A stretch of 64,000 nt of DNA. Source: Campylobacteraceae bacterium. GTDB lineage: Bacteria > Campylobacterota > Campylobacteria > Campylobacterales > Sulfurovaceae. Positions within the stretch are counted from its first letter, which is position 1. Each line of letters opens with the position of its first letter. Where the stretch lies: contig JALVXC010000002.1 in the NCBI GenBank assembly GCA_027038275.1, positions 1 to 64,000 of the forward strand, written 5' to 3'. Positions 9,334 to 18,640 of this stretch are shown piece after piece. The notes under the pieces are model-generated. The model ran no database searches. It was not told the DNA's origin and saw only the letters and a program-made list of their open reading frames with translations. Made by a program: the position numbers and the translations under genes.

Positions 9334-9705
9334 ATGGCAACAACTAAAGAAGATGTATTAGAGTTTATCTCAAATTTGTCAGTATTGGAGCTTTCAGAGT
9401 TAGTAAAAGAGTTTGAAGAACATTTTGGTGTATCTGCACAAGCTACTGTAGTAGCAGCAGGTGGAGATGCAGGTGCAGCTGCTGCAGAAGAGAAAACAGA
9501 GTTTGATGTTGTTCTTACAGATGCAGGTGCTAAGAAAATTAATGCTATTAAAGTTGTAAGAGCAATTACTGGTCTTGGACTTAAAGAGGCAAAGGCTGCT
9601 GTTGAAGATGTTCCAACTACACTTAAAGAGGCTATCTCTAAAGAGGAAGCAGAAGAGATTAAAAAGCAGATTGAAGAGGCTGGTGCTTCTTGTGAAGTTA
9701 AATAG
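9334..9705 (+). CDS. rplL: 50S ribosomal protein L7/L12
   Basis: [42 protein letters not shown]. Confidence 0.98.
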
Positions 9706-9725
9706 GTCATTTTTGACTTATGCTT

Positions 9726-9756
9726 TTCAGATGAGTTTTTCTCATCTGAAATTTTT
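9726..9756 (+). terminator. intrinsic terminator after rplL
   Basis: ttcagatgag-ttttt-ctcatctgaa then attttt. Confidence 0.8.
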
Positions 9757-9774
9757 AATGTTTCAACCCTTTCT

Positions 9775-9847
9775 TCTACTGCATTAGTAACAGTAGATAA
9801 ACCTATGCTCAGGTTATAATTCTTGTACTGCATTAGTAACAGTACAA
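9775..9847 (+). other. tandem hairpins with identical loop in rplL-rpoB intergenic region
   Basis: TACTGCATTAGTAACAGTA at 9777-9795 and 9826-9844, with aacct-atgctc-aggtt hairpin between. Confidence 0.8.
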
Positions 9848-9891
9848 AATCAACAAAGACAGATTATATTTTATTAGGATATAGCGATAAG

Positions 9892-9912
9892 CTATTGCGC
9901 AATAGTTTTTTT
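9892..9912 (+). terminator. weak terminator-like hairpin upstream of rpoB
   Basis: ctattgcgcaatag followed by seven T. Confidence 0.5.
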
Positions 9913-9944
9913 GTATATCTATACATTTATTAATTAACATATAA

Positions 9945-18640
<8,696 letters not shown>

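What the first reader, a model, noticed from the sequence alone, without database searches (positions are those of the whole stretch)
9775..9847. Tandem hairpins with identical CATTAGTAA loop and compensatory stem change between rplL and rpoB
Seen: the 19-mer TACTGCATTAGTAACAGTA occurs at 9777-9795 and 9826-9844. Each copy folds as TACTG-cattagtaa-CAGTA. The next outward pair is C-G in copy 1 (c9776/g9796) and G-C in copy 2 (g9825/c9845), a compensatory difference. A third hairpin aacct-atgctc-aggtt sits between them. Inference: a structured RNA element (protein binding, RNase processing or attenuation) controlling RNA polymerase versus r-protein expression.
Basis: partly seen in the sequence, partly recalled or inferred. 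Interest (0 to 1): 0.68.

Follow-up and report, generated by a model that had tools for sequence, protein, structure and literature searches.

The report
Conserved RNA hairpins before rpoB
Between a ribosomal-protein gene and the RNA-polymerase genes, one genus of Sulfurovum-like bacteria carries one or two small RNA hairpins whose 9-base loop barely changes while the stem bases change in matching pairs. This looks like a new, still unnamed RNA signal in front of the RNA-polymerase genes, though what reads it is unknown.

Summary
Two 19-mers at 9777-9795 and 9826-9844 form hairpins with the same CATTAGTAA loop, and the C-G / G-C compensatory difference is real. The proposed third hairpin is not supported: it lies in a 16-nt insertion and is not kept in the nearest relative. 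Comparative data make the hairpins a genuine RNA element: 49 hairpins in 29 of 31 same-genus genomes (Sulfurovum-like, Sulfurovaceae), always between rplL and rpoB. The six inner pairs are paired in 49/49, all six with two-sided changes, with G-U wobbles only on the rpoB-sense strand. The loop core ATTAGTAA is exact in 45/49. A covariance model finds the hairpin convincingly only at this locus and only in this genus. Just downstream (9878-9919) lies a second, family-wide structured element: an imperfect 18-19-bp stem with a U-rich 3' arm, in the spacer where E. coli has its rpoBC attenuator and RNase III site. Neither matches Rfam. Best reading: the hairpins are loop-recognised cis-acting RNA signals in the rplL-rpoB intercistronic leader that tune read-through or processing, and so RNA-polymerase versus ribosomal-protein output. 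Selection on RNA structure and loop is shown; the ligand and mechanism are inferred.

The parts
9334..9705 (+). rplL (ribosomal protein L7/L12), upstream gene
   Evidence: ORF and translation
9725..9751 (+). hairpin just after rplL (11 bp, TTTCAGATGAG/CTCATCTGAAA, then TTTTT); terminator-like here. A hairpin of varying sequence stands here in nearly all relatives, often without a U-run
9766..9774 (+). pyrimidine-rich tract immediately 5' of hairpin 1; across all copies the base eight and the base six positions before the last stem base are invariant C and T (49/49)
9775..9797 (+). hairpin copy 1: stem TCTACTG/CAGTAGA, loop CATTAGTAA (9782-9790)
9815..9820 (+). TATAAT, -10-like hexamer between the copies (TTATAWY in all two-copy relatives, missing in single-copy ones); possible lineage-specific promoter, unproven
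   Evidence: the consensus scan did not call it
9823..9847 (+). hairpin copy 2: stem TTGTACTG/CAGTACAA, loop CATTAGTAA (9831-9839); the better CM match (42.0 bits) and the copy that most single-copy genomes resemble
9878..9919 (+). element E: imperfect 18-19-bp stem GATATAGCGATAAGCTATT/AATAGTTTTTTTGTATATC with a GCGC tip; family-wide, one place per genome, between rplL and rpoB; candidate attenuator or RNase III-type processing stem
9943..9949 (+). Shine-Dalgarno region of rpoB (AAAGAGG), about 95 nt downstream of hairpin 2
9957..14102 (+). rpoB (RNA polymerase beta subunit), followed by rpoC at 14102-18640

Best explanation
The tandem hairpins are a cis-acting RNA signal in the intercistronic leader between rplL and rpoBC, read on the + (mRNA) strand. 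The stem is only a scaffold: its sequence drifts while pairing is kept. It presents an 8-9-nt loop, (C)AUUAGUAA, with a pyrimidine 5' flank, to a trans-acting factor, most likely an RNA-binding protein. Binding of one or two copies to the rplL read-through transcript would set how much RNA continues or survives past the downstream stem E (9878-9919, attenuator- or processing-like), and so the ratio of RNA polymerase to ribosomal protein. SHOWN here: selection for structure and loop, the strand, uniqueness of the locus, restriction to the genus, a doubled state in one main clade, and a family-wide structured stem directly downstream. INFERRED: that a protein reads the loop, that E attenuates or is cleaved, and that the outcome is rpl/rpo balance. 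Direct blocking of rpoB translation is unlikely, because the hairpins end about 95 nt before the Shine-Dalgarno sequence.
For: There are 49 hairpins in 29/31 genus genomes with a readable spacer; the inner 6 pairs are standard in 49/49, and the core ATTAGTAA is exact in 45/49. On 22 distinct hairpins, 92.6% of cells pair against 19-54% with slid partners; 29 cells are changed on both sides against 8.1 in shuffles (0/500 reach this), and six pairs have two-sided changes. 22 of 294 inner-pair cells are G-U on the + strand and none is A-C, which fixes the transcribed strand as +. The covariance model hits twice in the own genome (8.1e-7 and 1.9e-6; the next hit is 0.056). In the family, every convincing hit is in rplL-rpoB of this genus. 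E is conserved and covarying in the family and unique to this spacer. E. coli precedent: attenuation and RNase III processing in the same spacer (Barry et al. 1980, cited in PMC2777011; Steward and Linn 1992, cited in PMC2659441). Removing the hairpins does not consistently change SD pairing in folds.
Against: There are no RNA data, no known ligand and no effect on expression shown. Two genus members, G003 and G004, lack the hairpins yet keep rplL-rpoB, so the signal is dispensable. Other genera of the family manage without it. The hairpins are predicted to fold at the same time as E, so no switching structure is visible. One copy has a degenerate loop in G028 and in G009.
Confidence: 0.55

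Rival explanations
1. Processing/stability rival: the hairpins are not read by a specific regulator but are mRNA end-protecting or endonuclease-guiding stems. E is an RNase III-type cleavage stem and the hairpins protect the 3' end of rplL mRNA or the 5' end of rpoB mRNA.
For: E. coli cuts the same spacer with RNase III. E is a long imperfect stem kept in nearly the whole family. In G003 and in part of genus g4 it is a nearly perfect stem.
Against: End protection needs a stem, not a specific loop; the loop is the most conserved part while the stem drifts. Loop invariance would need an extra reason, such as a sequence-specific nuclease or cofactor.
Confidence: 0.25
2. DNA operator and promoter rival: the two inverted repeats are binding sites for a DNA-binding regulator flanking a -10 box (TATAAT 9815-9820), 33 bp (about three turns) apart in most relatives, and rpoB mRNA starts at hairpin 2.
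For: TTATAWY lies between the copies in all two-copy genomes; spacing is 33-34 bp in most; the C. jejuni sigma-70 motif is an extended -10 TGxTATAAT with no clear -35 box (PMC3656092), and GGTTATAAT at 9812-9820 nearly matches it.
Against: A dyad operator conserves its arms and frees its centre; here the arms co-vary and the centre is fixed. G-U pairs occur on one strand only. Spacing is 49 bp in the window. Single-copy genomes lack the TATA box. No other operator copies exist in the genome.
Confidence: 0.1
3. nut/put-like antitermination rival: the hairpins act on the transcribing polymerase, directly like HK022 put RNA or through Nus factors, to let it pass E.
For: Tandem hairpins (58-74 nt in all) with a pyrimidine 5' flank lie upstream of a terminator-like stem and in front of the RNA-polymerase genes; put RNA is two stem-loops in about 70 nt that act through the beta' zinc-binding domain (PMC9378689).
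Against: The family's rrn boxA (TGATCTTTGACA or TGATCTTTATCA) is not present at the hairpins; only YCYT of the flank is constant and the rest belongs to the covarying stem. Single-copy genomes exist. No sequence kinship with put was shown.
Confidence: 0.07
4. Mobile or repeat-element rival: the hairpins are a small dispersed repeat (MITE/REP-like) or a chance tandem duplication without function.
For: Two near-identical copies in tandem; a 16-nt insertion between them in the window lineage.
Against: Unique to one locus in the genome, kept at the orthologous place in 29/31 genomes with covariation.
Confidence: 0.03

Closest known systems
E. coli rplL-rpoB intercistronic attenuator and RNase III site (Barry, Squires and Squires 1980; Steward and Linn 1992, known here through citations in PMC2777011 and PMC2659441)
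   Same: Same spacer, same operon logic; structured RNA with terminator-like or long-stem elements between r-protein and RNA-polymerase genes
   Different: No sequence kinship was sought; the loop-conserved hairpins have no E. coli counterpart known to me; attenuation and cleavage are untested here
HK022 put RNA (PMC9378689)
   Same: Two RNA stem-loops in tandem, about 70 nt, upstream of terminators
   Different: Phage element whose activity lies in a whole 3D fold, not in two identical 9-nt loops; polymerase binding is untested here
Ribosomal-protein leader RNAs (for example the L10 leader in Rfam)
   Same: Cis-acting hairpins in r-protein operons
   Different: No Rfam family matches this spacer even at a relaxed threshold; position is before rpoB, not before an r-protein gene
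boxA/boxB (nut) antitermination sites
   Same: Pyrimidine-rich tract next to a hairpin
   Different: The boxA of this family, seen in its rrn leaders, is absent at the hairpins

Membership tests
Any Rfam family (release 15) | score at or above the gathering threshold | tested here: not met
   only tRNAs in the window; in 9700-9960 only chance-level matches
Structured RNA element (general) | compensatory base changes in the proposed stem | tested here: met
   six pairs with two-sided changes, 29 cells vs 8.1 in shuffles, 0/500; 294/294 inner cells paired
E. coli-type rplL-rpoB attenuator/RNase III region | location between rplL and rpoB on the coding strand | tested here: met
E. coli-type rplL-rpoB attenuator/RNase III region | partial termination in the spacer | not testable with these tools
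   hairpin 9725-9751 with a T-run and E with T7 are terminator-like only
E. coli-type rplL-rpoB attenuator/RNase III region | RNase III cleavage in the spacer | not testable with these tools
   E is a long imperfect stem; no RNA-end data
boxA/nut antitermination site | boxA sequence as in the family's own rrn leader | tested here: not met
   family boxA TGATCTTTGACA/TGATCTTTATCA; flank of the hairpins keeps only YCYT
DNA operator (inverted repeat) | conserved arms, variable centre, no strand bias of mismatches | tested here: not met
   the centre is conserved, the arms co-vary, G-U pairs on one strand only
HK022 put RNA | binds the beta' zinc-binding domain and suppresses termination | not testable with these tools
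   needs in vitro transcription
dispersed repeat (MITE/REP) | several copies across the genome | tested here: not met
   one locus only

The most novel reading that the evidence does not exclude
A host-encoded nascent RNA element senses RNA polymerase itself: the (C)AUUAGUAA hairpins bind polymerase or a Nus-type factor and control read-through of E into rpoBC, an autogenous loop in which polymerase abundance sets its own synthesis. In the other genera the role would be played by the conserved-loop hairpin that caps E (loops CAUUUCAUAC, YAAUAYYUAC), which this genus lost and replaced by one or two free hairpins.
Probability: 0.07. Interest if true: 0.82.

Novelty: new variant of a known kind. 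Interest (0 to 1): 0.52.

Why it matters
How bacteria keep RNA polymerase and ribosomal proteins in proportion although both are encoded in one gene cluster is well studied mainly in E. coli. Here is a second lineage where the same spacer holds a different, strongly selected RNA anatomy: a loop that hardly changes on stems that do, in one or two copies, upstream of a family-wide stem. That gives a defined 25-nt bait to find the factor that reads it, and natural variants (0, 1 or 2 copies; degenerate loops) to test dose.

Tried and rejected
Third hairpin: in an insertion, not kept in G017, dropped. Rfam match: none. Other genomic copies: none; hits in other genera and families at E 5e-4 to 0.1 looked like chance, and those read lie in coding-like sequence. 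13-mer hits in other genera: scattered single places without the flanking stem. boxA/nut: family boxA read from rrn leaders of related genomes (the own genome has no 16S match) and not found at the hairpins. Loop pairing to a target in cis: the 8-nt complement at rpoB +424 in 21/25 genomes is the AT-rich coding of a conserved Ile-Ile-Asn and is lost in less AT-rich relatives, so it is explained by codons. SD occlusion: no consistent change of SD pairing when hairpins are cut off. E as an extended -10 promoter (TTTTTTTGTATATC): poor match to TGxTATAAT, and the 5' arm keeps complementarity at variable distance, so RNA structure is preferred, though an overlapping promoter is not excluded. A first regex extraction of E failed for technical reasons and was replaced. 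Literature searches found no description of this element; most subscription papers are not held.

Full report
What was checked. Copy 1 has 7 pairs, copy 2 has 8; the C-G versus G-C difference at the sixth pair is correct. Genes: rplL ends at 9705 and rpoB starts at ATG 9957, followed by rpoC. Organism: record titles of near-identical rpoB contigs read Sulfurovum sp. or Campylobacteraceae/Epsilonproteobacteria MAGs, so a Sulfurovum-like genus of Sulfurovaceae (inferred from titles).

Relatives. I took the rplL-rpoB spacer of 31 same-genus genomes and 58 genomes of other genera of the family. The hairpin occurs in 29 of 31 genus genomes: two copies in 20 (one copy has a degenerate loop in G028 and in G009), one in 9, none in G003 and G004. 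No other genus of the family has it (weak hits at E 0.005 or worse elsewhere). A sample of about 300 genomes of the class gives only scattered hits (E 5e-4 or weaker) that look like chance matches, mostly in coding-like sequence.

RNA evidence. Across 49 hairpins the six inner pairs are standard in every one, with these types from the loop outwards: GC/AT; TA/AT; CG/TA/TG; AT/GC/GT; TA/CG/TG; GC/CG/AT/GT. Loop positions 2-9 read ATTAGTAA in 45/49, while loop position 1 is freer. On the 22 distinct hairpins 92.6% of cells pair (19-54% when partners are slid), with 29 two-sided changes against 8.1 in shuffles. The shuffle control does not correct for relatedness; the six pairs with different two-sided changes and the slid-partner control are the stronger argument. 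Wobble pairs are G-U on the + strand and never A-C, so the selected molecule is the mRNA-sense transcript. A DNA operator would show the opposite pattern (fixed arms, free centre). The 5' flank is pyrimidine-rich with two invariant positions.

History. On a tree of rpoB DNA the outgroup genera have no hairpin. Two intact copies occur in one supported clade of 15, which includes the window, and in one further genome (L164 = G009); G028 (L173), scored as one copy in that script because its second loop is degenerate, also lies outside the clade. Most other, earlier-branching genus members have a single copy, which mostly resembles copy 2. Several deep forks are poorly supported, so one duplication with later losses and more than one duplication cannot be told apart.

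The neighbour. The strongest conserved island of the spacer is further downstream, at 9878-9919 (element E). It is found in nearly all genomes of the family sampled, at one place per genome, in this spacer, and not in other families of the class sample. It is an 18-19-bp stem with conserved mismatches and a U-rich 3' arm; four pairs have two-sided changes. In most other genera it carries an extra cap hairpin with its own conserved loop (ACAUUUCAUACC or YAAUAYYUAC); in this genus the cap is mostly a GCGC or GUGC tip. In G003 the stem is a perfect palindrome. E could be a terminator/attenuator (stem plus U-tract), an RNase III-type stem, or both.

Interpretation. E. coli attenuates and RNase III-cleaves the same spacer (Barry et al. 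1980, as cited in PMC2777011; Steward and Linn 1992, as cited in PMC2659441). The most economical reading here is an intercistronic regulatory region in which E decides continuation or processing, and the hairpins are recognition tags. Because the loop, not the stem, is fixed, a sequence-specific reader is likely; because the hairpins are far from the SD and do not consistently alter SD pairing in folds, translation is not their direct target. Which factor reads them is unknown. boxA-type antitermination was tested against the family's own rrn boxA and not met. A cis target for the loop was looked for and explained away by codon usage.

Verdict. A real, apparently undescribed cis-RNA motif (no Rfam match; no paper found), genus-restricted, with strong comparative support and unproven function.

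Noticed in passing
window 9878-9919 (+): Family-wide structured RNA (GATATAGYGAYAARCTATT...AATAGTTTNTTTGTRTATC) in the rplL-rpoB spacer of Sulfurovaceae, one place per genome, no Rfam match; arguably the bigger find than the tandem hairpins.
   Followed up: partly
L104, L122, L131, L113 and other non-genus spacers: In most other genera this stem is capped by a hairpin with a conserved 10-12-nt loop (GAG-ACAUUUCAUACC-CUC or AGAG-YYAAUAYYUACG-CUCU), loosely similar to CAUUAGUAAC; possible functional exchange with the free hairpins.
   Followed up: partly
L139, L140, L143, L144 (genus g4 spacers): A long, almost perfect stem (GCCTAAAAATAGGYAA...TTAYCTATTTTTAGCC type) between E and rpoB, not seen in other genera sampled.
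   Followed up: no
L094 (G003): The E stem is a perfect 42-nt palindrome GATATACAAAAAAACTATTGCGCAATAGTTTTTTTGTATATC and the tandem hairpins are missing.
   Followed up: no
L071 (G013), L082 (G005): Extra hairpins inserted at the tip of E (about 25 nt) while both E arms stay intact.
   Followed up: no
L074 (G015): E has lost its 5' arm but keeps TTTTTGTATATCTATACATT; the only genus member examined with a broken E stem.
   Followed up: no
rrn leaders L244-L246: boxA-like TGATCTTTGACA or TGATCTTTATCA about 90-145 nt before the matched 16S start in Sulfurovaceae.
   Followed up: partly
L247 (G020): The 16S match in this same-genus MAG has a GC-rich upstream region unlike the rest of the genome and a lower score; probably a contaminating contig.
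   Followed up: no
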